A DNA stretch of 48,473 bases from Frankia nepalensis (lineage in GTDB: Bacteria; Actinomycetota; Actinomycetes; Frankiales; Frankiaceae). The stretch is taken from the NCBI RefSeq assembly GCF_016786325.1, contig NZ_JADWYU010000136.1, positions 52,562 to 101,034 of the forward strand. Reading direction: 5' to 3'. Positions 4,957 through 27,876 of the stretch are shown in pieces. A model generated the notes under the pieces. That model made no database searches, had not been told where the DNA came from, and worked only from the letters and a program-made list of their open reading frames with translations. Positions within the stretch are counted from its first letter, which is position 1. Each line of letters opens with the position of its first letter. The position numbers and the translations under genes are program-made.

Positions 4957-5616
4957 ATGGCCCAGCCCGCGCCACGCCCCCAGTCCCACCCCACGACCCC
5001 AGCTGACCCGTCACCTGGCGCGGCCCCCGCGTTCCACCTGGTAGACCCGACCCCGCGGCCCGCCTATGGCTACCTCGCCGTCCCCGACGACGACGAAGAC
5101 CAGATCAACAGTCTCCACGCCCGCCTGGCCACCCACGCCACCGATGCCGGCCTGACCCTGCTCGAGGTCTACGTCGACCGCGACACCACCCCCACCACAC
5201 CCGACCGCCCCGGCCTCGAAGACCTCCTCGCCGAGCTCGCCCACCACCCCGGCGCCGTGCTCCTCGTCCCCGGACCCAGCCACCTACCCGCTACCCCGAC
5301 CGCGCACCACGCTCTCACCCACCGGCTCGCCCAGACCCGCGCCACCCTGCGCGCGCTCTCCACCCCACCGCCGCGCCTTCCCGCTGCCCAGGCACCGCAC
5401 TGCGTACCCCAACCGTCGGCGCCCGGACCGGGCCTCGGCCCCCTCACCGCCGAGGGCACGTTCGAGCTCACCCTGCGCCCCGACGACGCCGCCGCCACCC
5501 TCATCAGCGCCCTCGTCCGCCTTCCCGCCGACGCCCGCTTCGTCGAGAGCTACGGCGACGTCGCCACCACCCTGGTCTTCCACCCGGCACCGGACACCGC
5601 CGGGCAGCCTCGATGA
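4957..5616 (+). CDS. Serine-recombinase-like protein lacking the catalytic serine
   Basis: The 219-residue product has a resolvase N-terminal-domain pattern at about 36-135. AYGYLAVPDDDEDQ stands where active resolvases have YARVSTDDQ. GLTLLEVYVDRD follows, then DRPGLEDLLAEL (the RPGL motif), then GAVLLVPGPSHL where an active enzyme has an arginine-rich RLDRLGR-like segment. The catalytic serine and the later arginines are absent, so recombination activity is unlikely. Residues about 160-210 form a second small domain containing FELTLRPDDAAATLISALVRL. The ATG follows GGAGGACGCG, the same context as the gene at 4243. The stop overlaps the next ATG (ATGA). The fold assignment is by motif reading only. 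Confidence 0.6.
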   Translation: MAQPAPRPQSHPTTPADPSPGAAPAFHLVDPTPRPAYGYLAVPDDDEDQINSLHARLATHATDAGLTLLEVYVDRDTTPTTPDRPGLEDLLAELAHHPGAVLLVPGPSHLPATPTAHHALTHRLAQTRATLRALSTPPPRLPAAQAPHCVPQPSAPGPGLGPLTAEGTFELTLRPDDAAATLISALVRLPADARFVESYGDVATTLVFHPAPDTAGQPR

Positions 5617-7536: not shown

Positions 7537-8087
7537 GCGCCCCGGAGCCCGACCCCGCTGGCACCCCGCCCGGCTGGGGCACCGGTGCTGGCTGGATACC
7601 CGGGTCCGACTGGGATCGCGGTCCGGGGCTGGGCGCGGCCGGTTGGATGGGCTGGCGCCCGCCGGAGCCAGCGGACCCGGCGGCGGTGACACGACCGACC
7701 ATGCGCGAACCCCCACCCGGCCGGGAGCCGGCGCCGGGCCAGACGGTCGTCACCGACAGATGGCTGCGCCTGCTGTGCTGGCTGGCGGTGACGGTGATGC
7801 TCGCCGTGCTGGCGCTGTGCGCGGTGGCGACTTGGAAGGTGCTGGCCGCGCCAGCACAGACGCCGCGATGCACGGCCGCCGGACCGGTGGCCGTCTGGTC
7901 ACCTGGCCCGCGCGCGCCTGCGGGCTGCCCGCTGGGAGATGACAGCCCTTCACACGAGCCGCCAGCTGATCTGTCCCCGCCGACCGTCCGGCCAGCCGCA
8001 GCCTCGCCAGCCGTTTCCATCCGGCAGACGCCTCGGCGTGCCCGGGCCTCGGCCGGGTGGGGAGGGCGGTCGGCGTGGGTGAGGTGA
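7533..8087 (+). CDS. Single-pass membrane protein of the T4SS operon
   Basis: The 184-residue protein starts at an ATG overlapping the previous stop and ends in GTGA overlapping the next start. Residues about 1-72 are Pro/Gly-rich and probably cytoplasmic. One transmembrane helix (LLCWLAVTVMLAVLALCAVA, about 79-98) follows. The remaining 85 residues are Pro/Ala/Ser-rich and probably extracytoplasmic. A one-TM protein between a pilin-like protein and a VirB6-like protein is common in actinobacterial conjugation loci, but I cannot name a family. Confidence 0.7.
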   Translation: MSAPEPDPAGTPPGWGTGAGWIPGSDWDRGPGLGAAGWMGWRPPEPADPAAVTRPTMREPPPGREPAPGQTVVTDRWLRLLCWLAVTVMLAVLALCAVATWKVLAAPAQTPRCTAAGPVAVWSPGPRAPAGCPLGDDSPSHEPPADLSPPTVRPAAASPAVSIRQTPRRARASAGWGGRSAWVR

Positions 8088-9331
8088 CGGCGCTGAGCCG
8101 CCTGCCTGGCGCGGGGCTGTTCACGGACATGGGCGAAGACGTCGCCGTCACGATGCTGCGGGCGATGCTGCAGATGTTCACCGACGCGTTCGGCGCCCGG
8201 ATCCGCGACATCCTGACCGAGATGTTCGCGGCGTCGCAGCGCCCGCCGGTTACTGCCGCAACGTTCATCTCCGGCGACGGGCCCTACCACACGGTCGCCT
8301 CGGTCTCCACCGGGCTGCTGGCTGTTGCCCTGGTCATCGGGGTGATCCAGGGGCTGCTGTCCGGCCAGCCCGGGCAGGCGTTCGCCCGCCTTGGCATCCA
8401 ACTCCCGATCGCCGTCCTGGCGATCGGCGGCTTCCCCTGGCTGGCCGACCAGATGCTCACCCTCGGCGACGTCCTCGCCGACGCGGTCCTACCCCCGGAC
8501 AAGACCACCCGCCTCGTCGAGGTCATCTCGACACCCCCATCGGACGACTTCCCCGGCCTGCTGGCGACCCTGCTGGCGTTCCTCGGCGCCGTCCTTCTGG
8601 CCATGGAACTCGTCGTGCGCGACGCGCTGGTCCTGATCATCGTCGCGCTCGCCCCGCTGTCGTTCGCCGCGTCGGTCATCCCCGCCGCACGGCCAGCCGG
8701 CGGCCAGGTCGTGCGCCTCGTCGGCGCCGCTGTCCTCGCCAAACCGTCGATCTACGTCGCGCTGCGGATCGGCGTCGACCAGCTCGACGAGCCCTACCAG
8801 GCCGGGGCCGAGCCGTCGTCCTGGCGTGCCTACATCCTCGCGCTGGCCGTCGCGGTCGTCGCGGTGTTCATGCCCGCCGTCGTGTGGCGGCTGATCCCGC
8901 TGGCCGAGGCGTTCACCCTCGCCCAGGGAATCTCGCGTGCCCCGTTCCGCGGCGCGCAGCAGACCGCGCAGCTCGCCTACTGGGGCCGTGCCCTCGGTGG
9001 CGGCCTCGGTGCCGCGTTCGGCTCCGTTCTCGGTGTCCGCCGTGGCGGCCAAGCCGGGCGTGGGCTGCCCGGAGGGGCACCCCGACCAGCTGGCGAGCGG
9101 GATCGCTTCCAGGCCAACGCTCCCCGCCAGCTGCCCGACCCGTCCTCGGATCCGACCTCCCGGCGGCGAAGACCCGACCCACCAGCCGGCGGCGACTCGC
9201 TGCGTCCCGCACCCGACCCGCCAGCACCACCGCCCGGCGCCGGCCCGGGGACGGCGGCCCGCCGGCGGCAGCCACGCCGACGCCGGCCTGACCCCGGCGG
9301 CGCGGCCGACCCAGGCGGAGGCGGCCGGTGA
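8084..9331 (+). CDS. VirB6/TrbL-like polytopic membrane protein
   Basis: The start is GTG 8084 (GTGA overlap); earlier in-frame GTG codons would lengthen the overlap. The product has 415 residues. Hydrophobic segments in order include STGLLAVALVIGVIQGLL, ARLGIQLPIAVLAIGGFPWL, LLATLLAFLGAVLLAMEL, DALVLIIVALAPLSFAASVI and YILALAVAVVAVFMPAVV. About six helices are followed by a long Pro/Arg-rich cytoplasmic tail from about residue 300. The pattern is that of TrbL/VirB6 channel proteins, which form the inner-membrane conduit of type IV secretion. It is tightly coupled to flanking T4SS genes (next start GTG 9328 in GTGA). Confidence 0.82.
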   Translation: MTALSRLPGAGLFTDMGEDVAVTMLRAMLQMFTDAFGARIRDILTEMFAASQRPPVTAATFISGDGPYHTVASVSTGLLAVALVIGVIQGLLSGQPGQAFARLGIQLPIAVLAIGGFPWLADQMLTLGDVLADAVLPPDKTTRLVEVISTPPSDDFPGLLATLLAFLGAVLLAMELVVRDALVLIIVALAPLSFAASVIPAARPAGGQVVRLVGAAVLAKPSIYVALRIGVDQLDEPYQAGAEPSSWRAYILALAVAVVAVFMPAVVWRLIPLAEAFTLAQGISRAPFRGAQQTAQLAYWGRALGGGLGAAFGSVLGVRRGGQAGRGLPGGAPRPAGERDRFQANAPRQLPDPSSDPTSRRRRPDPPAGGDSLRPAPDPPAPPPGAGPGTAARRRQPRRRRPDPGGAADPGGGGR

Positions 9332-11071
9332 GCGAGCCCGTCTACCGGCTTCCTCCACGCCGCGCCGGAACCGCCTTCTACGGCCTGACCGTCCCCCAAC
9401 TCGCCCTCGCGGCCAGCGGCCTGGCCGCCCTGATCGCCGCGACCACCCTGCTCGGTGGCCGCGCCGGCCTGCTCATCGGCGTCACCGCCCTGACCGTCGC
9501 CGTCCTGCTCGCCACCGTCCACCTCGGCGGCGAACCGCTCCGCCATCTGCTCCCGCTGTTCGCCCGCTACACCCTCACCCGCCTACGCCACCTCGCCCCG
9601 CCGTCCGCGGCGCGACGCCGGTCCAGAGGCGGCGGCACACGCGGCCGGCCCACCGAGCTGGCTACGCGACATAGACATCCTCGACATTCCCGATCCCACC
9701 CTGACCGGCCGCGACGGCGAGCCCCCTGCCGTCATTCGCCACCGCGGCGGCGCGCTCACCGTCGTCCTCGACGTCCGCGGCGGCCCGTTCACCCTCCTCG
9801 ACCCCACCGACCAGCACCACCACCTCGCCACCTGGGCAGGCGTCCTCGCCCAGACCGCCCGCGACCCAGCAGTCCTCACCCTCGGCTGGACCCTGCGCAC
9901 CCACCTCGCCACGCCCCAACCCCTCCCGGCCACCACCCCACGACAGCGGCCGGAGACGACGACAGACGCCACCCGCCGTCAGATCCGCACCGACGGACTC
10001 GGTGCGGGCGATGAGCCCCGGGCGCACGCGAGAAGCAACGGCACGACGGCCACGGCACGCACGCTCACCCGGCCGACCGCCACACCAGCCCACAACGGCG
10101 TCGACATCCACGTCAGCGGCGCGACGAGCCAGACAGGCGACGCGGCGACGCTCGCCTCCTACCGCGCCCTACTCGCCGACACCCTGCTCCAGCACCACGA
10201 CCTACGCCTCTGGCTCACCGTCGACCCCCGCCGCGCCCACCACCGCCGCGCCAGCCCCGACCGCCCCGAACAGGTCGCCCTCGACACCGCCCGCCAACTC
10301 GCCACCCGCGCCGCCACCGCCGGCCTCACCGTCCACGGCGCCCTCACCACAGCCCAGCTCACCGCCGAACTCACCGCCCACGCCGACCCGACCACGGCCA
10401 CCGCCCCACCCGCCAACCGGACAGCGCCGACCGACGCGGCGAGGCCAGTCGAACCGCGCGGACTCGCCGCGCGCGCCAACCTCCCTGGCGCCCGCCACGC
10501 CCCAGCCACGCCCACGCCACCGCCCCTGGATCCCACGCCCACCCGGACCACGGTCGAGGCCTACTGGGACGCCGCCCGGATCGGCGCGACCTGGCACCGG
10601 GTCTTCTGGGTAGCCGCCTGGCCCACCGGCCCGCTCCGCCCCGGCTGGCTCGACCCCCTCCTGCACGAAACCCCCGCGGCCCGCACCCTCACGGTCGCCC
10701 TGCAACCCATCCCGCCGCGCACGTCACGGCGCCGCCTCAACCAGGACACCGCGGCCGTCGAGCTTGCACTCCAGATCCGCGACCGCCACCGGGTCCGCAT
10801 CCCCACCCATCTGTCCGCCGCCCACGACGCCCTCGACCAGCGCGACGCCGAACTGTCCGCCGGTCACCCCGAACTCGCCTACACCGCCCTGATCGACCTC
10901 GCCGCCCCCGACCGCCCCGCCCTCGACACCGCGACCGCCGAGCTGGCAGACCTCGCCGCCCGCGCCGGCATCACCGACCTGCGTCCCCTGCACGGCCGCC
11001 ACCACCACGTCTTCCCCGCGACGCTCCCGCTCGGCCTCACGATCCGCCGCCCGAATCCCGGAGCCCACTGA
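9328..11071 (+). CDS. SCO6880-family T4SS protein, split by a frameshift
   Basis: The first frame (GTG 9328) encodes an N-terminus typical of the family: VYRLPPRRAGTAFYGLTVP, then two hydrophobic helices to about residue 70, ending FARYTLTRLRHLAPPSAARR. It then continues as arginine/histidine-rich nonsense to 10014. The family's main body is in the +1 frame from about 9620 to the stop at 11069-11071: SWLRDIDILDIPDP, GALTVVLDVRGGPFTLLDP, AYWDAARIGATWHRVFWVA, ELSAGHPELAYTALIDLAA, ending FPATLPLGLTIRRPNPGAH. The body has no stop codon, and I found no start codon near its beginning. The two parts join only with a +1 (or -2) shift in the linker near 9600-9640. It may be a mutation, a sequence error or a translational frameshift. 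The stop overlaps the next ATG (TGATG). Confidence 0.8.
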
Positions 11072-12576
11072 TGCCAGCCCATCCCACCCAGCCACACCGC
11101 ACCCGCCGGCGCCGCGCCGCCCAGCCACCGACGGTCCCCGTCACCCTGCCCTGGGACATCGCCACCACCGCGCACCTGTGCGCGCTCAGCCCCCTGCCGA
11201 TCGAAACCGCGCTGCCACCGACCGGCCCGCTGCTCGGCACCGACCGCCTCGCTGGCGGCGCCTTCCACTTCGACCTCATCGCCGCCTACGAAGCCGGCCT
11301 CATCCAAGGCCCCAACATGCTCATCTCCGGCGCCGGCGCCCACGGCAAATCCGCACTCGCCAAGGCCTACCTCCACCGCACCACCGCCCTGACAGCACTG
11401 ACCGGCCGTCCCCGCTGGACGGCCGTGATCGACCCAAAAGGCGAATGGACGGCGCTGGGCCACCAACTCGGCTACGCCGTCCTGTGCTTCCAACCCGGCG
11501 GCACCCTGCGCGTCAACCCCCTCGACACCACCCCGGGCGGCATGACCATCGCCGCACCAGCCACCACGCGCCACACCACGAGACCCGGCGCCGCCCGTCC
11601 GCCCGCGACACCGCGCACGTCGGCGACCACGCGCTCGGCCACCAGCGCCACACACCACCACGCCCCGACAGGTCAGCCCGACGACGAGACCCGTGACGAG
11701 GTCGCCGACGTCGCCGCGCGACGCGCCGCGGTCCTGGAAACCCTGCTCGCGATCGCCCTCGACCGCCCCGCCCTCGACCCCAGCCAGCAACGTCTCCTCG
11801 TCGAGACCGCCCGCCGCCTCACCACCCGCCCCGGCGCCGCCGCGTCCGGCCCGAACGCGCCGACCCTGCACGACGTCCGCGGCGTACTCGCGCAGCCAGA
11901 TCAGACCCTGGCCGACGACCTCGACACCACCCTCGACGAACTCCTCGATCGCCGCCGACCCCTACTCGACGCCACCGTCGCCCTCCTCGAACACGACCTG
12001 CGCGGCATCTGCGACGGCCCCACCAGCGCGGGTCTCACCTGGCACACAGCCCCCGGCCTGATCCTCGACCTGTCCGCCCTGCTCACCCAGCCGCGAACGC
12101 TGAAACTCGTCCTCACCGCGGCCACCGGCTGGCTCGCGGCCGTGATGTACGGCCAACCCGCAGCCCACAAGGTCACCATCGTCGACGAAGCCTGGATCGC
12201 CCTCGACGACCCCGCCATCACCCGCCACCTCCACAACCAGTGGCGCCTCGGCCGCCAGTTCGGCCAGGTCAACATCCTCATCACCCACGCCATCGCCGAC
12301 CTCCACACCGGCACAGGCCGCAGTGGCACGAGCACCGCCGAAGGCCTCCTCAACACCACCTCCGTCCGCGTCTACCTCCACCAGAACCCCGAACACGTCG
12401 GCAGACTCCTCACCGACATGGGCCTCACCCGCCGCCAAGCCGCGTTGCTCGACCAACTCCCGCCATTCACCGCGCTTTGGCAGATCGGCACCCACACCGC
12501 ACTCGTCGACCACCACATCACCCCCGACGAATGGACGTTCGCCGACACCGACACCGCCATGACCACCAGGACCTGA
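11071..12576 (+). CDS. VirB4/TraC-like conjugation ATPase
   Basis: The 501-residue protein is a P-loop ATPase. The N-terminal part has GPLLGTDRLAGGAFHFD and AGLIQGPNMLISGAGAH, the latter leading into the Walker A motif GAGAHGKSAL at about 87-96. A VIDPKGEW motif follows near 118, and Walker B VTIVDEAW near 368-375. The late region LGRQFGQVNILITHAIADL and LNTTSVRVYLHQNPEH resembles VirB4/FtsK-HerA enzymes. It powers substrate or pilus assembly in type IV secretion at the inner membrane. It follows the SCO6880-family gene, the usual order in actinobacterial loci. A Thr/Ala/Pro-rich insertion (about 160-215) separates the Walker motifs. Confidence 0.88.
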   Translation: MPAHPTQPHRTRRRRAAQPPTVPVTLPWDIATTAHLCALSPLPIETALPPTGPLLGTDRLAGGAFHFDLIAAYEAGLIQGPNMLISGAGAHGKSALAKAYLHRTTALTALTGRPRWTAVIDPKGEWTALGHQLGYAVLCFQPGGTLRVNPLDTTPGGMTIAAPATTRHTTRPGAARPPATPRTSATTRSATSATHHHAPTGQPDDETRDEVADVAARRAAVLETLLAIALDRPALDPSQQRLLVETARRLTTRPGAAASGPNAPTLHDVRGVLAQPDQTLADDLDTTLDELLDRRRPLLDATVALLEHDLRGICDGPTSAGLTWHTAPGLILDLSALLTQPRTLKLVLTAATGWLAAVMYGQPAAHKVTIVDEAWIALDDPAITRHLHNQWRLGRQFGQVNILITHAIADLHTGTGRSGTSTAEGLLNTTSVRVYLHQNPEHVGRLLTDMGLTRRQAALLDQLPPFTALWQIGTHTALVDHHITPDEWTFADTDTAMTTRT

Positions 12577-12722: not shown

Positions 12723-14471
12723 ATGACACAGGACAACGAGCCGCGACACGACCCGCGGCCGGCGGCCGGTTACCCGCAGGGCTGGCCGGTGTGCGTGCAG
12801 GTCCCGGCCGGATGGTGGCGGATCTACCAGCTCGTCGGCGACGGCATGAGGATCCACGTCGCGGAACTGATCGCCCATACCGCCGACGTCGACAACCCGA
12901 TGGCGCCGCCAGCCCGCTCGGTGCGCCAGCCGTCCGTGTGGCAGCTGGAAGAGGCGCTCGGCTGGGCGATCCCGACCCCGGCGCACCCGATCCTCGACAG
13001 CGCCACCCGGCTGCTGGCCTACCGGGCCGCCCCGGCCGCCGACCCCAGGACCCGGCCCGCGACGCTTCCCGAAACCGTCGCCGCGAATCCGGTGTTCCGG
13101 CCCTGGCGCGCGAGCGTCGTCACCCGCGAGGGACACGCCCCGACCAGCTACGGCCGACTTCGCCACGCCGAGCATCCGCTGGTCACCTGGACCGACGGCC
13201 CGCTGCGCATCGACATCCTCGCGGCTCGCCCACGGCCGCGCCTCGGCACCGGGGGCTACCGGCTGGCCTACCGGATCAGCGACCACGACCGGGTCGTGCT
13301 CGCCGGCCAGGACGCCGCTCTGACCACCGACGGCCCTCAGTCGAGCAGCGCGATCCGCGTCGTCGCCGCCCGCGCCGCGATCCTCGACACCGGCGGCCAC
13401 CGCCACGGCACGGCCCTGCCCGCCCAGCAGCGTCGACTCCTGCGCATCCACCGAGCCCGGCTCTACGCGGCCGCCGCCCCCGTCGGCCATCCCTACCTGC
13501 CCGGCACCCGGGTCGCCGTCCGCGACCCCGCCCAGCACACCACCACGACCGGCACCGTCCTGGCCCATGTGCTCGGCGCCGGCGCCAGCGACCTGCGCTA
13601 TCTGTGGCGGCCCGACGTCGCGGCCCTTCCGGGCCACCCCTGGCGTGACCACCCCGGCTGGGCTCTGCAGACGCCGGCTGGACTCGCCCGCGCCACCGTC
13701 CGCCCGCCGGACCTGAACACCGAACCTTCCCGCGGCGAGCTCGTCCTGGCCACCGGCGCCGTCGTGCGCACCCTCGACGACCCCCGCTTCTCCGTCGGCA
13801 CCGTGTTGCGCGCCCTCACCGACGACGACTACCAACTCCGCTACGAGATCCAGCCCCACGACCACCCGTCGGCCCCGGTGGTCCTGCCCGCCGACGACAT
13901 CGTCGCCATCGCCGGCACCGCCTGGCCCACCGTCACCGACCTGCTCACCGCCCGCGCCACGGCCCTGCCCCTCACCTCCGGCGAGGTCCTCACCGCCACG
14001 CACGACCGCGCCATCATCGAGCAGGACGTCACTGGCCCGCGCCTACGCACCGTGGCCCGCCACCCTCAGGCCAGGACTGTCCTCGCCCCCGCCACGATCC
14101 CGATCGACGTCGCCGTCGCCCCGGCCTCACCGGGCGCGGAACCGACCAGTTGGCTGACCGGTCCAACCCGCCACCTCCTCGACCCCGTCCACGGCCACCT
14201 CGCCGTCGAGGACGCCCTGTTCACCGCCGCCCGCCAGCTCGCCCCCGACCACCTCGCCGCGATCCTCGCCCGCCTTCCCTGGCTTCCTCCCGGTCCCCAC
14301 CACCCAGTCACCGCCGCAGCCCTCGCGGCAATCCACGCCCCGCACCCCGTCGCCGCCCTCGTCGCGGCCGGCCCGGCGGCCCTGCCCAGCGCCCACCCGA
14401 CTCCCGATCCCTCATCGGGACCTGCGGCTCCGGCCAGGCCAGACCCCGGAGCATCCTGCGACGGCCCCTGA
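12723..14471 (+). CDS. Unknown-family protein, paralogue 1
   Basis: This 582-residue protein belongs to a family with four full-length members in this window and no family I recognise. Conserved blocks in order: VCVQVPAGWWRIYQL (about 21-35); RQPSVWQLEEALGWAIP (about 66-82); a YGRLRHAEHP block (about 142); GPLRIDILAARP; HPYLPGTRVAVRDP; YLWRPDVAALPGHPWRDHP (about 293-311); ATGAVVRTLDDPRFSVGTVL (about 343-362) followed by RYEIQPHD; GTAWPTVTDLLTAR (about 398-411); and a C-terminal module with DPVHGHLAVEDALFTAA and RLPWLPPGP. Two successive stretches of about 45 residues (GTxVAV...TTGTVL and GAxV...DDPRF..TVLRA) look like duplicated small beta-barrels, an inference from pattern only. No signal peptide or membrane helix. 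It stands alone behind array copy B, downstream of the VirB4-like gene. Confidence 0.8.
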   Translation: MTQDNEPRHDPRPAAGYPQGWPVCVQVPAGWWRIYQLVGDGMRIHVAELIAHTADVDNPMAPPARSVRQPSVWQLEEALGWAIPTPAHPILDSATRLLAYRAAPAADPRTRPATLPETVAANPVFRPWRASVVTREGHAPTSYGRLRHAEHPLVTWTDGPLRIDILAARPRPRLGTGGYRLAYRISDHDRVVLAGQDAALTTDGPQSSSAIRVVAARAAILDTGGHRHGTALPAQQRRLLRIHRARLYAAAAPVGHPYLPGTRVAVRDPAQHTTTTGTVLAHVLGAGASDLRYLWRPDVAALPGHPWRDHPGWALQTPAGLARATVRPPDLNTEPSRGELVLATGAVVRTLDDPRFSVGTVLRALTDDDYQLRYEIQPHDHPSAPVVLPADDIVAIAGTAWPTVTDLLTARATALPLTSGEVLTATHDRAIIEQDVTGPRLRTVARHPQARTVLAPATIPIDVAVAPASPGAEPTSWLTGPTRHLLDPVHGHLAVEDALFTAARQLAPDHLAAILARLPWLPPGPHHPVTAAALAAIHAPHPVAALVAAGPAALPSAHPTPDPSSGPAAPARPDPGASCDGP

Positions 14472-17998: not shown

Positions 17999-20772
17999 GC
18001 GCCCCACGGGCTCAGGCGCCGGCGTTGTCGGCGGAGGCGCTGGTGTTCGGGTTTGTCGCCGCGTTCGGGGCGTTGGCGGTCGCGGTCTGGTGGGGCGCGC
18101 AGCTGGCCAGCCTGCTGTTCGGAGCGCATCGCTGGCTGCCGGTCGGTCCGCGCGACGCGTTCCTCGCGGTGCCGCAGCTTGCCGCCCACCCCGCCCGGCC
18201 GGCCGACGCCTGGCCGGCAGTCGCCGCCCACCTGCCGGGCGCGGCCGGCTACTGGGCCGCCTCGGTGGTGCCGATCGCCGTCGCGGTGTTCGCGGTCGCG
18301 GTCCTGCTCGCCCTCACCAGCCGCCGTGTCGGTGTCGAGCGGCGCCGCCGAATGGGTCTGGACCCCGAAGCCCGGTTCGCCGGGCTCGCCGACCTGGCCC
18401 CGCTGCTGGTCACCGGCCCTACCCCGGGCCGGCTGCTGCTCGGCACGGTGAGGACCGCCGGCCGGGTCCGCCTGGTCGCGACCGAGGACGCCGCGAAGCC
18501 GTTGGACGCCGCTGTGCCGCGCCGGCTGCACCGGGCCGCGGCGCGGCGCCGCTCCGACCGGGGCGCGGTGCTCGCGCTCGGCCCGACCCGCTGCGGCAAG
18601 ACCGCGGCGCTCGCCGTCCCCGCGATCCTCGAATGGGACGGGCCGTTGATCGCGGTGTCGGTGAAGACCGACCTGCTCGGCGCGACCGAGGCCCGCCGCC
18701 GGGCGCTGGGCGAGGTGCGGGTGTTCGACCCGGCTGGTGCCACCGGCCAGCCCTCCGCGGGCTGGTCCCCGCTGACCACCTCCCAATCACTGGCGGGGGC
18801 GCGGCGCGCGGCCCGCTCGGTGGCGGCGTCGACGGAGTGGAACAGCGGCGGCTCGGGCGACATGTCGTTCTGGACCTCGGCTGGGGAGGACCTCGTCGGC
18901 CTGCTGTTCTGGCTCGCCGCCCAGACCGGCCTGGGCATGGACAGCGTCATGGGCTGGATCACGACCCAGGACAAGGACACCGTCCTGTCCCTGTCCAGCG
19001 CGTTCGCCGACCACCTCGACCCGACGGTCGCGGTCGAGGGCCGGCAGGTCGACCAGGCCCTGCAGGCCGTGTGGCGTTCCGATGCCCGTCAGCTTTCCTC
19101 TGTCTACCTGGTCGCCCGGCAGATGATCCGTCCCTGGCAGGAACCGACCGTCCAGGACTCCGCGATCCCCACGCCCGGTGCCCCCATCGACCTCGACTGG
19201 CTCCTGGGCACCAGCACCCCCACCAGCGAGACATCCGGTCCCCACACCAGCGACCGCATGCTGCCCCCAGCCACGTGGCCCACCGTCGACGACGATTCGT
19301 GGGCCGGAGGCTTCCCCGGCCAGATCGCAGCCTTCCGCGCCGCCGCCGGCGGCTGGACGCTTCCACCCACGTCGGCATCGCCGGTCCCCGCCGGCGCGGA
19401 CTCCAACGGCGCGAACGGCGCGGAAACCGACGCGCCCGGCGCGGGCCCCACGAACGGCGCGCCGGGTGACGGCGCGAACGGCGCGTGGGCGCCGACCGGC
19501 GCGGCCAACGACGGCGCGTTCAACGCATGGCTCAGCGGCGGCGCGAACGGCGCGAACGTGAACGGCGCGGGCGGGACGCGCCGCTCCGTTCAGGACAGCG
19601 GCACACCAGCGCGCCCGCGGCGCGAAAGGCGCGAGGAACAGCGCGCCGAACAGCCGCCGGCGCGTCCCTGGCGGCGCGCCTGGCTCTCAGCCAGCTGGCC
19701 TCGGCGCGACGCGAAAGGCGCGGAGCTGCCCGCGCCGACGCCGGCGCGGCGGCCGGTGAACAGCCTCTACGTCTGCGCGGACCTTGACGACGCCGAACGC
19801 CTCGCCCCGGTCCTCGGCGGCCTGGTCGACGAGTTGCTGCGCGACGTCTACCAGCACGTCGGCCGTACCGGAAAGCCGCTCGACCCGCCGCTGCTCCTCG
19901 TCATCGACGAAGCCGGGAACTGGCCGATGCGCTCCCTGCCCTCCCGGATCTCGACCTGCGCCGGGATGGGCGTCGTCCTGCTGCTGCTCTACCAGTCGAA
20001 AGCCCAGATCGACGCCGCCTACGGCCCCAAGGCCGACATCGTCGTCTCCAACGCCACCACGAAGGTCTTCTTCTCCGGCCTGTCCGACCGTTCCAGCCTC
20101 GACTACGCCGCCTCCCTGCTCGGCCAGGAACACATCGCCGCCCGCTCCGTCTCCTCCGACTCCAGCCCCGGCGGCGGACGCACCGGCCTGTCCGAGGCCC
20201 CAACCCGCCTGGAGCTCCTGCCCGCCGCGCTGCTACGCCAGGTCGCCCCCGGGGAGGCGCTGCTCATTCACCGCACCCTGCCTCCTATTCACCTGCGCGG
20301 CCGCTACTGGTTTCGCGACCCGCACCTACGCCGTCTTGCCACCGGCGGCGAACCAGCCGGCCCCGCTGGCGCGGGCCGCGCCACCGGCCGGCCGCGCCGC
20401 GCCGGTCGTCCACACGGGAGACGGCGCGAACGGCGCGCCGTCACATACGGCGCAACGCGCCGCGGCGCGGTCACCGGGCGCGCCGACGAGCTAACCGCCT
20501 CGGGACGCGCCGACGGCGCGAACCGTGCCGCCCCTCCCACAGCCCAGCCGCGCCGCGGCGCGCGCCGTGCCACGGCTGGCGCGCCCGACAACGCGCCGTC
20601 CGTGCCGTCGACGCGCCGCGCTGACCCGCCAGGGCGCGCCGGCCGCGCGCCATGGTGGCGCGCCTGGCGCGCGCCGGCAGCAGATCGCGCCACGGCTCCT
20701 GCCACCGGCGGCGTGGCCGCGCGGGCGCGCCGCTGGCCGGCGCGCCGCGCCCCAAAGGGTGACGGCCGATGA
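17995..20772 (+). CDS. VirD4/TraG-like type IV coupling protein
   Basis: The 925-residue protein has two N-terminal membrane segments (about 12-40 and 84-108). Walker A GPTRCGKTAAL lies at about 196-206, followed by PLIAVSVKTDLLGAT and VRVFDPAGATGQPSAGW. Walker B LLLVIDEAGNW lies at about 632-642, with GVVLLLLYQSKAQIDAAYG and STRISTCAG-type motifs of TraG/VirD4 enzymes nearby. It would bring substrate DNA to the secretion channel. Two features are odd. A low-complexity insert (about 462-588) with GANGAN-type repeats splits the ATPase domain. An Arg/Ala-rich tail of about 140 residues follows about 790. Both are encoded by DNA full of GGCGCG. GTG start overlaps the 65-residue ORF, and the stop overlaps paralogue 2 (ATGA). 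Confidence 0.88.
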   Translation: MSAPRAQAPALSAEALVFGFVAAFGALAVAVWWGAQLASLLFGAHRWLPVGPRDAFLAVPQLAAHPARPADAWPAVAAHLPGAAGYWAASVVPIAVAVFAVAVLLALTSRRVGVERRRRMGLDPEARFAGLADLAPLLVTGPTPGRLLLGTVRTAGRVRLVATEDAAKPLDAAVPRRLHRAAARRRSDRGAVLALGPTRCGKTAALAVPAILEWDGPLIAVSVKTDLLGATEARRRALGEVRVFDPAGATGQPSAGWSPLTTSQSLAGARRAARSVAASTEWNSGGSGDMSFWTSAGEDLVGLLFWLAAQTGLGMDSVMGWITTQDKDTVLSLSSAFADHLDPTVAVEGRQVDQALQAVWRSDARQLSSVYLVARQMIRPWQEPTVQDSAIPTPGAPIDLDWLLGTSTPTSETSGPHTSDRMLPPATWPTVDDDSWAGGFPGQIAAFRAAAGGWTLPPTSASPVPAGADSNGANGAETDAPGAGPTNGAPGDGANGAWAPTGAANDGAFNAWLSGGANGANVNGAGGTRRSVQDSGTPARPRRERREEQRAEQPPARPWRRAWLSASWPRRDAKGAELPAPTPARRPVNSLYVCADLDDAERLAPVLGGLVDELLRDVYQHVGRTGKPLDPPLLLVIDEAGNWPMRSLPSRISTCAGMGVVLLLLYQSKAQIDAAYGPKADIVVSNATTKVFFSGLSDRSSLDYAASLLGQEHIAARSVSSDSSPGGGRTGLSEAPTRLELLPAALLRQVAPGEALLIHRTLPPIHLRGRYWFRDPHLRRLATGGEPAGPAGAGRATGRPRRAGRPHGRRRERRAVTYGATRRGAVTGRADELTASGRADGANRAAPPTAQPRRGARRATAGAPDNAPSVPSTRRADPPGRAGRAPWWRAWRAPAADRATAPATGGVAARARRWPARRAPKGDGR

Positions 20773-22580
20773 ACGCCACCAGGCCGGCCGACCCCGCCCC
20801 GAATGGTGGCCTGGTCGGGCCGGGGGAGGACCTGGAGCGGTTCGACACCATGTCGTTCCCGCTGTGTGTGCAGGTCCCGGGCGGCTGGTGGCGGTTCTTC
20901 CCCGTCGAGGGGGGTGCAGCGGAGCGGGAGTACGTCGCCCAACTGGTCGCGTTTCCCGCCGTGCCCAGCTCGGTCGCGCCCACGTTCCTGACCCGCCAGC
21001 CGTCGCTGTGGAAGTTGGAGGAGCAGCTCGGCTGGGCGATCCCGCTCGCCGGCCACACCGTCCTTCGGACAGCGGCTCCCTGGCTCGCACTCGGGCGATA
21101 CGGTGCGCTCCGGCCCGCGGGCACCGGCAGCGCGCTGTTCACCCACCGGGCTGACACGGCACTGCCGGACGAAGCCCTAGCCGCGGGCTGCCGGCCCGCG
21201 CGGGCGCGCCTAGTCCTGCGCGCCGGGCACCCCCCGACCACCTACGGCCGCCTCCTCTACGCCGAAAATGCTGCCCGCCGCTGGGCCTACGGCCCGCTCC
21301 GCGTCGAGATCCTCACCCCCGAACCGGCGGCGGGTACCACCGCCGACGGCGACCACGCGCCGCGGTTGGCCTACCGCGTCTACGACCAGACACGGGTCGT
21401 GTTCGTCGGCGACGACGTGCCGCTGCCCGACGCCGGCGCGGACTCGACCGCGGCGATCCGCGCCGTCGTCACCGCCATCACGGCGGATCGCGGCGGTGTC
21501 CTCACCTCGAACCAGCGGCATTTCCTGGCCGCCGACGGCGTCGGGCTCGCCCACGCGGTCCGCCCGTTCGCCCACCCGTACCCGCCCAGCACCCCGGTCA
21601 CCGTCACCGTCGCCGACCCGGCACGCGGCGGACCTGCCACCGGGCTTGTCCTGGCCAGCGCCACGGGCCCCGACGGCGGGCTGGTCTACCTGTGGCGTCC
21701 CGACGTCGCCGACCTGCCCGGCCATTCCTGGCGTACCCATCCGACCCGCGCCCTGCCGGCCCCCGCCGGCGTGGTCGAGGCGACTCTTGGCACGCCCGAC
21801 GTCCGCACCCACGACCCGGCCGGCGAACCGGTCCTCCTCGCGACCGGCGCGCTGGTCGCCGCGATCGACGACCCCCGCTTCCACGTCGCCACCGTGCTAC
21901 GGACCTTCGCCGGCGACGGCCCCAGCCCGCGCTACGAGATCCAACCCCACGACACCGCCGCCGGCCCGATCGAAGTGAACGCCGGTGAGGTCATCCCGCT
22001 CGCCGGCACGGCCTGGCCCACCAGCCGTGGCCTGCTGCACGCCCGCGACGACGGCGGCCTGCCGCTGCGGCCCTTCGAACTCATCGTCGCCGTGCGCGAC
22101 TACGGCGTGGCGACCGACGGCTGGCCCGGCATCCACTTCGAAGCCGTCGGCGACCTCCCACCAGCCCCCGCCACCCTCGACCCCACCGCACACACCCACG
22201 CCGTCGACGTCACCCCCGGCCCACCGCCGCGCCGGCCCGCCCCGCACCAGCAGGAAGCAGCCGCCACCGGCTTCGACGGCGTCCGCCACCTCTGGCACCC
22301 CGAGCTGGGCCACCTCGCCGTGCCCCACCGGCTCTACGCCCAGGCCCGCGACGCCGACCCCGCCCGCCTCGCCGCGGTGCTCGAGCGCCGTCCCTGGCTG
22401 CCCGCGGGCCCGCACAGCGCCGAACTCGCCGCCGTCCTCGCGGCCCTGCACGCACCCGCCGAACTCGCGGCCCTGACCCCACGGGCCCTCGACGCGGCCA
22501 ACCAAGTGCCCGGACCGGACCTGCCCTTGGCCGGTGGCCCGCCGACCGACGCCGCCGACCCGCCCGGGCCGGGCCTGTGA
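20769..22580 (+). CDS. Unknown-family protein, paralogue 2
   Basis: The 603-residue protein overlaps the coupling-protein stop by 4 nt, so it is part of that operon. Family blocks: LCVQVPGGWWRFFPV (about 32-46); RQPSLWKLEEQLGWAIP (about 76-92); LVLRAGHPPTTYGRLLYAEN (about 148-167); GPLRVEILTPEP; YLWRPDVADLPGHSWRTHP (about 297-315); ATGALVAAIDDPRFHVATVL (about 347-366); RYEIQPHDTAAGPI; GTAWPTSRGLLHARD; and the C-terminal module VRHLWHPELGHLAVPHRLYA with ERRPWLPAGP. No membrane segment. Coupling to a VirD4-like protein is the best functional clue: a conjugation accessory or substrate-related role is inferred, not shown. Confidence 0.8.
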   Translation: MNATRPADPAPNGGLVGPGEDLERFDTMSFPLCVQVPGGWWRFFPVEGGAAEREYVAQLVAFPAVPSSVAPTFLTRQPSLWKLEEQLGWAIPLAGHTVLRTAAPWLALGRYGALRPAGTGSALFTHRADTALPDEALAAGCRPARARLVLRAGHPPTTYGRLLYAENAARRWAYGPLRVEILTPEPAAGTTADGDHAPRLAYRVYDQTRVVFVGDDVPLPDAGADSTAAIRAVVTAITADRGGVLTSNQRHFLAADGVGLAHAVRPFAHPYPPSTPVTVTVADPARGGPATGLVLASATGPDGGLVYLWRPDVADLPGHSWRTHPTRALPAPAGVVEATLGTPDVRTHDPAGEPVLLATGALVAAIDDPRFHVATVLRTFAGDGPSPRYEIQPHDTAAGPIEVNAGEVIPLAGTAWPTSRGLLHARDDGGLPLRPFELIVAVRDYGVATDGWPGIHFEAVGDLPPAPATLDPTAHTHAVDVTPGPPPRRPAPHQQEAAATGFDGVRHLWHPELGHLAVPHRLYAQARDADPARLAAVLERRPWLPAGPHSAELAAVLAALHAPAELAALTPRALDAANQVPGPDLPLAGGPPTDAADPPGPGL

Positions 22581-22642
22581 CCCACCCCGGCCGCCGGCCC
22601 TGGCCGGTCCACGCCCACCGCCGCTCTTCCCAGGAGGACCCG

Positions 22643-24415
22643 ATGACCGTGCCACCCAGCGACGCCCACGGCCCGGCCGGTGACACCGGCCAGCCCGACC
22701 CGTCGCTCGTCGACCACGACGTCTACCCGGTCTGTGTGCAGGCCCCAGCCGGCTGGTGGCGGATCTTCCCGCTCGCCGCCGGCGCGGGCCGCGAGTACGT
22801 CGCCGAACTGGTCACCACGGGGCCGGGCACCCCCACCCGGCCACTGCGCCGGATCCGCCAGTCCTCACTGTGGACGCTGGAGGAACACCTCGGCTGGCCA
22901 CTCCCACGCACCTGCCACACCATCCTGGGCGCCGCGACGCCGGAGTCGGCGAACCGCGCGGTCGCCGGCCGGCCCGACCGTGGCCACCCACGCCACCTCG
23001 CCCGGTCCGGCCACCGCCATCTCGCCCCCACAACCCCACCCCCTCGCGGCCGCGCGGACCGCTACCGGCCGTCGCGGGCGAGCCTGGTCCTGCGCGCCGA
23101 CCACCCACCCGCCACCCTCGGCCGGCTGCTACACGCCGAACCGGCCGAACGAGTCTGGACCCACGGCGAGACCCGCGTCGAGATCCTCACCACCCGGCCA
23201 GCCGCGCCACTGCTCGACGCCGACACCCAGATCACCTACCGGGTCTTCCACCGCGGCGTCCTGCTGTTCGCCGGCAACGACGCACACCTGCCCGCGACCC
23301 GACGACCCGCCCCGTCCCGCGCGGTACGCGTCGTCGTGATCACCATCATGACCGCGGCGGCGCGCCGACCGCTGACAGACCCCCAGCGCGCCTTCCTCAC
23401 CGCCCACGGCCCCGCCCTCACGCACGCCGCCCGGCCCGTCGAGCACCCCTACCCGCCTGGCACCGCCGTCGCCGTCACCGACCCCGAATACGCCTGGTAC
23501 ACCACTGGCACCGTCCTCGCCCACGCCACCGGCCCCGACGGCCACCTGGCCTACCAGTGGCGGCCCGACGTCGCCGACCTGCCCGGCCACCCCTGGCGCG
23601 ACCACCCCGGCTGGGCCGCCCAGTCACCCGCCGACCGCGTCCACGCCACCCTCGACACCCCGGACACCCACAGCGACGCCCCCGCCGCCACGCCGCCCAT
23701 CCTCGCCACCGGCGCCCTGGTCACCGCGATCGACGACCCCCGCTTCACCGTCGCCACCGTCCTGCGCGCCTTCGTCAGCGACAGCGCGCCCCGCTACGAG
23801 ATCCAGCCCCACAACACCGCGGGCCCGCCCCTGGCTGTGCGCGCCGAGGACGTCGCCCCACTGGCCGGCACCGCCTGGCCCACCGTCACCGACCTGCTCC
23901 TCGCCCGCGCCGCCGCCGACCTCGACCTACGCCCCGGCGAAGTCCTCACCGCCCTGCGCGACATGGCCGTGACCAGCGACAGCCCGCACGGCCCGCGCAT
24001 CCACGCCCGCGTCGCCCTGCCCGCCGTCGACCTCGTCCTCGACCCCGACGGCGGCCCGCCGCCCGTCGACGCGCCCCCCGCGCCCCGCACGCCAATCCCG
24101 GTCGCCTCCCTGACCACCGCCGACGGCATCCGCCACGTCCACCACCCCGACCACGGCCACCTCGCCGTCCCCGACGCCCTGTTCACCGCCGCCTACCAGG
24201 CCGACCACACCGCACTCGCCGACATCCTCGCCCGCCGCCCCTGGCTCCCCGCCAACCCCGACTCCTGGATCCTGACCGCCACCCTCGCCGCCCTGCACGC
24301 CCCCGACGACGTCATCACCCTCGCCACCCGCTCCCCCAGCCCGCCCCACCAGCCCGACCCGCCTGGCGACGACCATCCAGCCCACGGACCCTGGCCGTGG
24401 ACACAGCCGTCGTGA
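22643..24415 (+). CDS. Unknown-family protein, paralogue 3
   Basis: ATG 22643 is preferred because it follows AGGAGGACCCG; a GTG at 22577 overlapping the previous stop would add 22 residues. The product has 590 residues. The same block order is visible: VCVQAPAGWWRIFPL, REYVAELV, RQSSLWTLEEHLGWPLP, ASLVLRADHPPATLGRLLHA, YQWRPDVADLPGHPWRDHP, ATGALVTAIDDPRFTVATVL, RYEIQPHNTAGPPL, GTAWPTVTDLLLARAA and IRHVHHPDHGHLAVPDALFT with ARRPWLPANP. The DNA is extremely GC-rich with strong third-position C, like the neighbouring paralogues. Its stop overlaps the next GTG (GTGA). Confidence 0.8.
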   Translation: MTVPPSDAHGPAGDTGQPDPSLVDHDVYPVCVQAPAGWWRIFPLAAGAGREYVAELVTTGPGTPTRPLRRIRQSSLWTLEEHLGWPLPRTCHTILGAATPESANRAVAGRPDRGHPRHLARSGHRHLAPTTPPPRGRADRYRPSRASLVLRADHPPATLGRLLHAEPAERVWTHGETRVEILTTRPAAPLLDADTQITYRVFHRGVLLFAGNDAHLPATRRPAPSRAVRVVVITIMTAAARRPLTDPQRAFLTAHGPALTHAARPVEHPYPPGTAVAVTDPEYAWYTTGTVLAHATGPDGHLAYQWRPDVADLPGHPWRDHPGWAAQSPADRVHATLDTPDTHSDAPAATPPILATGALVTAIDDPRFTVATVLRAFVSDSAPRYEIQPHNTAGPPLAVRAEDVAPLAGTAWPTVTDLLLARAAADLDLRPGEVLTALRDMAVTSDSPHGPRIHARVALPAVDLVLDPDGGPPPVDAPPAPRTPIPVASLTTADGIRHVHHPDHGHLAVPDALFTAAYQADHTALADILARRPWLPANPDSWILTATLAALHAPDDVITLATRSPSPPHQPDPPGDDHPAHGPWPWTQPS

Positions 24416-26058: not shown

Positions 26059-27876
26059 ATGCCCCAGCCAGATGCCCACTCCAGCGGCGAAGACGACCTT
26101 CCACCCCCGCGGACGGCTGACCAGCGCGGTCCCGCCGGGCACGGCCCGGTCGAGATCGAGGTCACCGCCGGCCGCTGGCGGCTTTACCCCGTCCTCGACA
26201 ACGCCAGCGAGGTCCAGTTCGCGGCTGAGCTCATCCTCGGCCGCACGAACAAAATCCCAGGCCCGCCACGGTGGGCCATCGTCGAGCCCAACGTCCTGGC
26301 ACTGGAGGAGGCACTCGGCTGGGCGATCCCCCACCCCGCGCAGAACGCCCTCATCGTCGCCCAGTTCGACCTCCCCCTACCGCCACCACCGCCCAGCCCC
26401 GCGAACCCACTGCGCGACGACGTCCTACGCACGTTCGCGTTCCGGCCGACCCGCGCCAGCGCCGTGCACGGCCTGACCAGCCAACCCCTCACCTACGGCC
26501 GCCTGCTCGCCGTCGAACACCCGACCCGCAGCTGGGACCCCGGCCCGCTGACGGTCGACGTCTTCGAAGCCACCACCCTCGACACACGGGCCGCCGTCTA
26601 CCGCATCAGCGACACCACTCCCGGCCAGCCACCGACCGTGCTGTTCGCCGACTTCCTGACCGCCATCCCCGACGGCGACACCCTGACCACCGACGACGCC
26701 ATCCGCCACGTCCTGCTCGCCGTCCTGCACCGCGCCGAACACAACGGCCTCACCGCCGACCAGCTCGCCTTCCTCGTCGACCACAAGGACCTCATCGCTA
26801 CCGCCCTGACCGGGCCACCCGACCACCCCTACCCCCGCGGCACCCGCATCGCCGTCCACGACGGCGACCCCACCCACACCACCACCGGCACCGTCCTGGC
26901 CATCGTCGACGACCCCACCGGTCCCGCCTACCTGTGGCGACCCGACACCGCCAACCTGCCCGGCCACCCCTGGCGCGACCACCCCACCTGGACCCTGCGC
27001 ACCACCCCCCACCAGACCCAGACCACCCTCGCCACCACCGACCCCACCATCGACGGACCCGACGCCCCACCCGTCCTCGCCACCGGCGCGCTCGTCGCGA
27101 CCGTCGACGACCCCCGCTTCACCACCGGCACCGTCCTACGCGCCCTCCACGAGAACGACGCCTCCGGCCCGGCCTACGAGATCCAGCCCCACGACGCCCC
27201 GCTGCCCCCGGTGACCCTCGCCCCCGACGACGTCATCCCGCTGCGCGGCACCGCCTGGCCCACCATCGACACCCTCCTGGCCGCCCGCAACACCGCCAAC
27301 CTGCCCCTCAAACCCGGCGAACTGCTCCTCACCCTCCGCGAGATCACCATCGTCGCCGACAACCCCGACGGCCCCCAGCTCCTCGCCACACGGCCTGTGC
27401 CTCATACAGCCAGCCCCGCCCTCGACCCACCCGACGACCTCGTCCCCATCCCCGTCCCCACCGGCCTGGCACACCCCGCCAGCCCGCACCAGCCAGCCGG
27501 TCAGAACACGCCGCCCGCGACCCTGCACCAGACCGGCGACACCATCCACATCCACGACCCCATCCACGGCCACCTCACCGCCCCCGCAGACCTGTTCCGC
27601 GCCGCCATCCGCCTCCCCGAAACCCAACTCCACGCCCTCCTCGCCCGCCGCCCCTGGCTACCAGCCCCCACCACCGACCAGCCCCTGTACGTCACCGCCG
27701 CCCTCGCCGCCCAACACGCCGCCACCGACCTCACCGGACCGAGAGTCCATCAGCCAGCCACATCCCCCGACCTCGCCAACCCGGCCAGCGCGCTCACGAA
27801 CGACACACCAGCCACGTCGCACGCCGCGCCGCCCGACCTGCCTGGCCCCGCCCCGGCCTGGGACCCAGGTCCGTGA
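26059..27876 (+). CDS. Unknown-family protein, paralogue 4
   Basis: The 605-residue protein starts at an ATG after a GGAAACCGGCAACC spacer. It is the most divergent member at the N-terminus (VEIEVTAGRWRLYPVLDNAS instead of the CVQ.PAGWW block). It keeps LALEEALGWAIPHP, SQPLTYGRLLAVEHP, HPYPRGTRIAVHDGDPTHTT, YLWRPDTANLPGHPWRDHP, ATGALVATVDDPRFTTGTVL, AYEIQPHDAPLPPV, GTAWPTIDTLLAARNTA and the C-terminal HDPIHGHLTAPADLFRAA with ARRPWLPAP. The tail is Pro/Ala-rich. It closes the run of paralogues; no conjugation gene follows. Confidence 0.8.
   Translation: MPQPDAHSSGEDDLPPPRTADQRGPAGHGPVEIEVTAGRWRLYPVLDNASEVQFAAELILGRTNKIPGPPRWAIVEPNVLALEEALGWAIPHPAQNALIVAQFDLPLPPPPPSPANPLRDDVLRTFAFRPTRASAVHGLTSQPLTYGRLLAVEHPTRSWDPGPLTVDVFEATTLDTRAAVYRISDTTPGQPPTVLFADFLTAIPDGDTLTTDDAIRHVLLAVLHRAEHNGLTADQLAFLVDHKDLIATALTGPPDHPYPRGTRIAVHDGDPTHTTTGTVLAIVDDPTGPAYLWRPDTANLPGHPWRDHPTWTLRTTPHQTQTTLATTDPTIDGPDAPPVLATGALVATVDDPRFTTGTVLRALHENDASGPAYEIQPHDAPLPPVTLAPDDVIPLRGTAWPTIDTLLAARNTANLPLKPGELLLTLREITIVADNPDGPQLLATRPVPHTASPALDPPDDLVPIPVPTGLAHPASPHQPAGQNTPPATLHQTGDTIHIHDPIHGHLTAPADLFRAAIRLPETQLHALLARRPWLPAPTTDQPLYVTAALAAQHAATDLTGPRVHQPATSPDLANPASALTNDTPATSHAAPPDLPGPAPAWDPGP

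What the first reader, a model, noticed from the sequence alone, without database searches (positions are those of the whole stretch)
9328..11071. Essential-looking SCO6880-family gene is split by a +1 frame change
Both halves are well preserved and no stop interrupts the second frame for more than 1.4 kb, so the break is recent, an error, or used. The shift falls in the linker near 9600-9640. If real it may disable conjugation; if translational it would be a control point.
Basis: seen in the sequence. Interest (0 to 1): 0.55.

Follow-up and report, generated by a model that had tools for sequence, protein, structure and literature searches.

The report
Frame-broken copy of SCO6880-family gene
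One copy of a secretion-machine gene in a soil actinobacterium changes reading frame in a variable linker where its readable relatives do not, so it is most likely an ordinary recently broken gene or a sequencing error rather than a new control switch.

Summary
The frame change is present in the given sequence. Frame 0 from GTG 9328 encodes the two-helix N-terminal part and runs to a stop at 10012; the +1 frame, open 9494-11068, encodes the rest. It was seen in this copy alone: of 22 other family loci examined, 19 hold both parts in one frame, among them a paralog in the same genome, and 3 are cut by runs of N. The downstream frame has no ATG, GTG or TTG, so it is not an ordinary second gene; the zero-frame stop lies 344-436 nt past the shift interval, unlike classic programmed shifts. 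Downstream codons show no decay: 12 of 185 conserved columns differ, as in intact copies. Best reading: a very recent frame-disrupting mutation in an accessory type-IV-secretion-like operon, or a base-call or assembly error; reads are needed to decide. The tenth of the genome that was scanned shows no excess of frame breaks over a one-contig relative. Programmed frameshifting and 'essential' are not supported. Ordinary; low interest.

The parts
9328..9585 (+). SCO6880-family N-terminal part (two hydrophobic helices, VirB3-like), frame 0, confidently in frame to about here
9576..9668 (+). interval that holds the frame change (variable linker, 82% G+C)
   Evidence: codon-likelihood interval; homologue alignment; G+C
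9586..10014 (+). out-of-frame continuation of frame 0 to stop 10012-10014, Arg/Pro-rich
9626..11071 (+). SCO6880-family C-terminal part in the +1 frame; no ATG/GTG/TTG codon in that frame from 9494 to 11068
8057..9331 (+). upstream membrane protein, conserved next to this gene in relatives (VirB6-like position); its stop overlaps the GTG at 9328
   Evidence: Pfam TrbL only E 0.94
11071..12576 (+). VirB4-like ATPase; its ATG overlaps the stop at 11069-11071 (TGATG)
18025..20772 (+). VirD4/TraG-type coupling protein in the same region
   Evidence: PF02534 93.9 bits

Best explanation
This is one of two copies of an accessory SCO6880-family gene in a Pseudofrankia-genus genome, and it has very recently lost its reading frame through a small indel in a poorly conserved linker. 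A ribosome starting at 9328 makes the membrane-anchor part, then an out-of-frame tail, and stops at 10012; the rest of the protein is not made because its frame has no usual start codon. The stop is about 1 kb ahead of the overlapping start of the ATPase gene, so coupled translation of that gene should fall too. Shown: the frames, that the shift was found in this copy alone among those readable, the lack of starts, the absence of decay, the overlapping start. Inferred: that the base change exists in the cell, that the protein is non-functional, that coupling matters, and that transfer by this operon is lost unless the paralogous genes substitute.
For: Frame change not shared: 19 of 22 other loci single-frame, 3 cut by N. 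No ATG/GTG/TTG in the second frame. Conserved columns changed in the window 12 of 185, against 13/186, 19/192, 18/191, 13/186 in the four intact copies, so a real break would be recent. Accessory status: type present in 4 of 8 genus genomes, two copies here. No excess of frame breaks in the assembly: 5 start-less, N-free breaks in 884 kb called coding (this gene one of them, a transposase-like gene another) against 2 in 324 kb of the one-contig control genome (inspection). The gene's stop overlaps the start of the ATPase gene in the window, G004, G005, G006, F. canadensis and AgB32.
Against: The absence of any decay fits a sequencing or assembly error equally well. The genome is a 398-contig draft with N runs, reads were not available, and no second assembly of the strain was found. 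A genome-wide rate cannot judge one gene. The translational-coupling step is weakened by the C144 paralog, where the ATPase start lies 57 nt beyond the stop.
Confidence: 0.55

Rival explanations
1. Base-call or assembly error in an 82% G+C linker of a draft genome; the gene in the cell is intact.
For: Draft of 398 contigs with N runs elsewhere; linker 82% G+C; no decay downstream; the neighbouring membrane-protein and ATPase genes match relatives in one frame over long stretches.
Against: No excess of frame breaks over a one-contig genome; no N in the interval and no homopolymer longer than CCCC.
Confidence: 0.4
2. Programmed +1 ribosomal frameshift that sets the ratio of free membrane anchor to full-length protein.
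For: Both parts conserved; the shift falls between the two-helix anchor and the rest; the second frame has no usual start of its own, so only a frameshift or an unusual start could express it.
Against: Found in 0 of 19 readable homologues; zero-frame stop lies 344-436 nt after the interval, not at it; the zero-frame continuation scores as non-coding.
Confidence: 0.03
3. The gene has split into two working genes (separate anchor and body, as VirB3 and VirB4 are in many systems).
For: Break lies after the anchor part; virB3 is typically a separate gene next to virB4 (PMC12857230, passages seen) and fusions occur in some systems (PMC12102498, passages seen).
Against: No ATG, GTG or TTG in the second frame over 525 codons; the first product carries a 132-residue out-of-frame tail.
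Confidence: 0.02

Closest known systems
SCO6880 / CmdC-type proteins (NCBIfam NF042935; Streptomyces cmd cluster and SLP2 transfer genes)
   Same: C-terminal part scores above the family cut-off; a neighbouring gene encodes an ATPase, as in the cmd cluster (PMC2782261 passages).
   Different: Window copy is divided between two frames. Its closest relatives form a subtype that scores 864-927 bits with the A1 profile, against 54-62 bits for a second, weaker-scoring copy seen in all 8 genus genomes.
VirB3 plus VirB4 N-terminal domain of type IV secretion systems
   Same: Two N-terminal hydrophobic helices followed by a further helix; chains of R388 secretion-system entries rank 3-6, 8 and 14 in the fold search, 14 being named VirB4 and the others taken as VirB4 from their length.
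   Different: Fold matches not significant (best of any E 0.13, best R388 chain E 0.26; model mean pLDDT 45.8); no meaningful sequence match in the PDB.
Programmed +1 frameshift genes (features recalled)
   Same: Second frame conserved without its own usual start.
   Different: Not conserved in homologues; no stop at the shift site.

Membership tests
SCO6880 family (NF042935) | whole-protein score above 60 bits | tested here: met
   C part alone 89.6 bits; N part alone 17.8 bits
SCO6880 family (NF042935) | one continuous reading frame | tested here: not met
   two frames in the window; one frame in 19 of 22 other loci, 3 unreadable because of N
Programmed +1 frameshift | shift conserved in homologues | tested here: not met
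   0 of 19 readable homologues
Programmed +1 frameshift | zero-frame stop at the shift site | tested here: not met
   next zero-frame stop at 10012, 344-436 nt beyond the interval
Programmed +1 frameshift | slow or slippery codon at the shift site | not tested
   no motif scan was made
Programmed +1 frameshift | fused product made | not testable with these tools
   needs proteomics or reporters
VirB3/VirB4-type translocon part | two N-terminal transmembrane helices | tested here: met
   hydropathy peaks at residues 25-43 and 46-64; helices in the model of a homologue
VirB3/VirB4-type translocon part | VirB4 N-terminal fold | tested here: inconclusive
   non-significant fold matches to R388 secretion-system chains
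Type IV secretion / conjugation operon | VirB4-like ATPase next door | tested here: inconclusive
   best NCBIfam 29.2 bits of 325, Pfam AAA_10 20.7 of 27.5
Type IV secretion / conjugation operon | VirD4/TraG coupling protein nearby | tested here: met
   18025-20772, PF02534 93.9 bits of 20.1

The most novel reading that the evidence does not exclude
A lineage-specific +1 translational frameshift in the linker makes two products from one gene, a free VirB3-like membrane anchor and the full-length protein, and so throttles an actinobacterial secretion or conjugation operon.
Probability: 0.03. Interest if true: 0.6.

Novelty: new member of a known kind. Interest (0 to 1): 0.12.

Why it matters
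It matters little beyond annotation: it marks one of two paralogous transfer-like operons as probably non-functional (or misread), which bears on whether this element can move. If the frame change were used in translation it would be a new way to balance anchor and body of a translocon, but the comparison speaks against it.

Tried and rejected
Three other copies looked split by profile (L111, L112, L113); all three breaks coincide with runs of N (641, 337 and 289 letters), so they are assembly gaps, not parallel frameshifts. A first frame-break scan of 387 kb of the genome did not count the window gene, because part of its linker was scored as non-coding; the rule was widened and the scan extended to 1.13 Mb in 60 stretches. 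The widening was made after seeing that miss, and the same rule was applied to the control. Of the other start-less breaks, one in L086 is at an N run and L077 looks like an insertion-sequence transposase with overlapping frames (label recalled); L132, L146 and L161 were not followed up, nor were the two in the control. Pairwise dN/dS was uninformative: ratios with the window 0.47-0.63, among intact copies 0.43-0.69. Structure prediction of the Frankia canadensis homologue gave low confidence (mean pLDDT 45.8), so its fold matches are only suggestive. PDB by sequence: one match, E 0.73, meaningless. Viral contigs: no relative. Plasmids: 7 records, 22% of the query covered, under 60% identity. 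An overlap of this gene's stop with the ATPase start was first taken to hold for the C144 paralog too; a check showed that there the ATPase start lies 57 nt further on. Literature: programmed frameshift with type IV secretion and VirB4 gave one paper, on a phage (search listing); SCO6880 gave one paper (passages read); Frankia with integrative conjugative element and VirB4 gave one unrelated paper (search listing).

Not settled: real mutation against error. No reads or second assembly of the strain were available; the single scan of named genomes returned four relatives, and the tool warns that records of the window's own genome may be left out.

Full report
What is in the sequence. Frame 0 opens with GTG at 9328, overlapping the stop of the upstream membrane-protein gene, and is open to a stop at 10012. 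The +1 frame is open from 9494 to 11068. The first product matches SCO6880_fam (NF042935) positions 3-83 with residues 6-87 (17.8 bits, below the 60-bit cut-off on its own); the second-frame product scores 89.6 bits, best stretch 209-477. G+C by codon position and a codon-usage likelihood agree on a switch within 9576-9668, best point 9581. By the codon score, frame 0 goes from +35 nats up to 9585 to -67 after about 9650, while the +1 frame scores +113 after about 9650.

What the second frame can do by itself. It has no ATG, GTG or TTG in 525 codons, so it is not an ordinary separate gene. CTG, ATC, ATT and ATA codons occur, the first CTG at 9701, after conserved residues. Seven intact homologues have between 1 and 28 internal ATG/GTG/TTG codons beyond codon 85, the C144 paralog having one, so the lack here need not be a feature in itself.

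Comparison. The window lies in a 10.73 Mb, 398-contig draft. Its genus includes Pseudofrankia sp. BMG5.36 and Frankia sp. AgB1.9 (named records whose contig lengths equal those of G005 and G006), and G004 has the length given for Frankia sp. DC12 in PMC9680954 (Table 1 passage); these identities are my inference. The same genome holds a paralog on contig C144, 77% identical in DNA over two pieces, with both parts in one frame. The homologues in G004, G005 and G006 are also in one frame. I then examined 22 loci other than the window, chosen by me from the matches (51 of 146 genomes had a match) and including those four: 19 hold both parts in one open frame and 3 are interrupted by runs of N between the parts. 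The other copies were not opened one by one. So among the readable copies examined the frame change is seen in the window's alone.

Age of the break. In columns where the other four sequences of alignment A1 agree, the window's downstream part differs in 12 of 185; each intact copy, treated the same way, differs in 13 of 186, 19 of 192, 18 of 191 and 13 of 186. There is no sign of relaxed selection. dN/dS could not add to this. The neighbouring membrane protein and ATPase match their C144 counterparts over long stretches in one frame (62% over 348 aligned positions, 87% over 483).

Error or mutation. A frame-break scan over 60 stretches of the genome (1.13 Mb, 884 kb called coding) gave 34 breaks, of which 6 lack a start codon for the second run and 5 of these have no N nearby, the window gene being one. 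The same scan on 400 kb of the one-contig genome G004 (324 kb called coding) gave 16, 2 and 2. The draft therefore shows no general excess of frame breaks. This lowers the case for error but does not decide one gene. The interval holds no N and no run longer than CCCC, but it is 82% G+C.

Likely consequence. In the window, G004, G005, G006, F. canadensis and AgB32 the stop of this gene overlaps the start of the ATPase gene, which suggests coupled translation; in the C144 paralog the two lie 57 nt apart, so coupling is not a fixed feature. Stopping at 10012 would uncouple the window's ATPase gene. The N part has the features described for VirB3 proteins, two transmembrane segments and a following helix (PMC12857230 passages). 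VirB3 anchors VirB4 (PMC12102498 passages). A low-confidence model of the F. canadensis homologue has chains of the R388 secretion system, probably VirB4, among its best but non-significant matches. I therefore think the break cuts a VirB3-like anchor from a VirB4-N-terminal-like body; this is inference.

Is it essential? This subtype was found in 4 of 8 genomes of the genus including this one, here in two copies, while a more distant copy of 54-62 bits is found in all 8. In S. coelicolor, SCO6880 resembles cmdC; SLP2 genes of which three resemble SCO4127-4129 are needed for plasmid transfer; null mutants of SCO6878 and SCO6881 showed no defect on the medium tested (PMC2782261, passages seen). 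The gene is accessory as far as these data go.

Verdict. A recent real indel (0.55) and a sequence error (0.40) remain, and only reads can separate them.

Noticed in passing
12723-14471, 20769-22580, 22577-24415, 26059-27876 (+): Four proteins of 582-612 aa that all match the same place on contig C144 and the same place in the G004 stretch, with no Pfam or NCBIfam match at the thresholds used: an unnamed paralogous family around the coupling protein.
   Followed up: no
18025-20772 (+): VirD4/TraG coupling protein gave no tblastn match at 1e-4 in the C144 contig or in the stretches of G004, G005 and G006 searched, although the neighbouring genes did.
   Followed up: no
4957-5616 (+): Resolvase N-terminal domain with a C-terminal Frankia-40 domain.
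   Followed up: no
32146-34515 (-): 789-aa ORF whose start resembles a TIR-type domain (recalled, not tested) and, by eye, the start of an ORF in L086 of the same genome.
   Followed up: no
L077:30-856 (contig C144 about 20030-20856): Transposase-like gene in two overlapping frames without a start for the second; the insertion-sequence label is recalled.
   Followed up: partly
L111, L112, L113: SCO6880-family genes in other genomes of the family apparently split, but by runs of N.
   Followed up: yes
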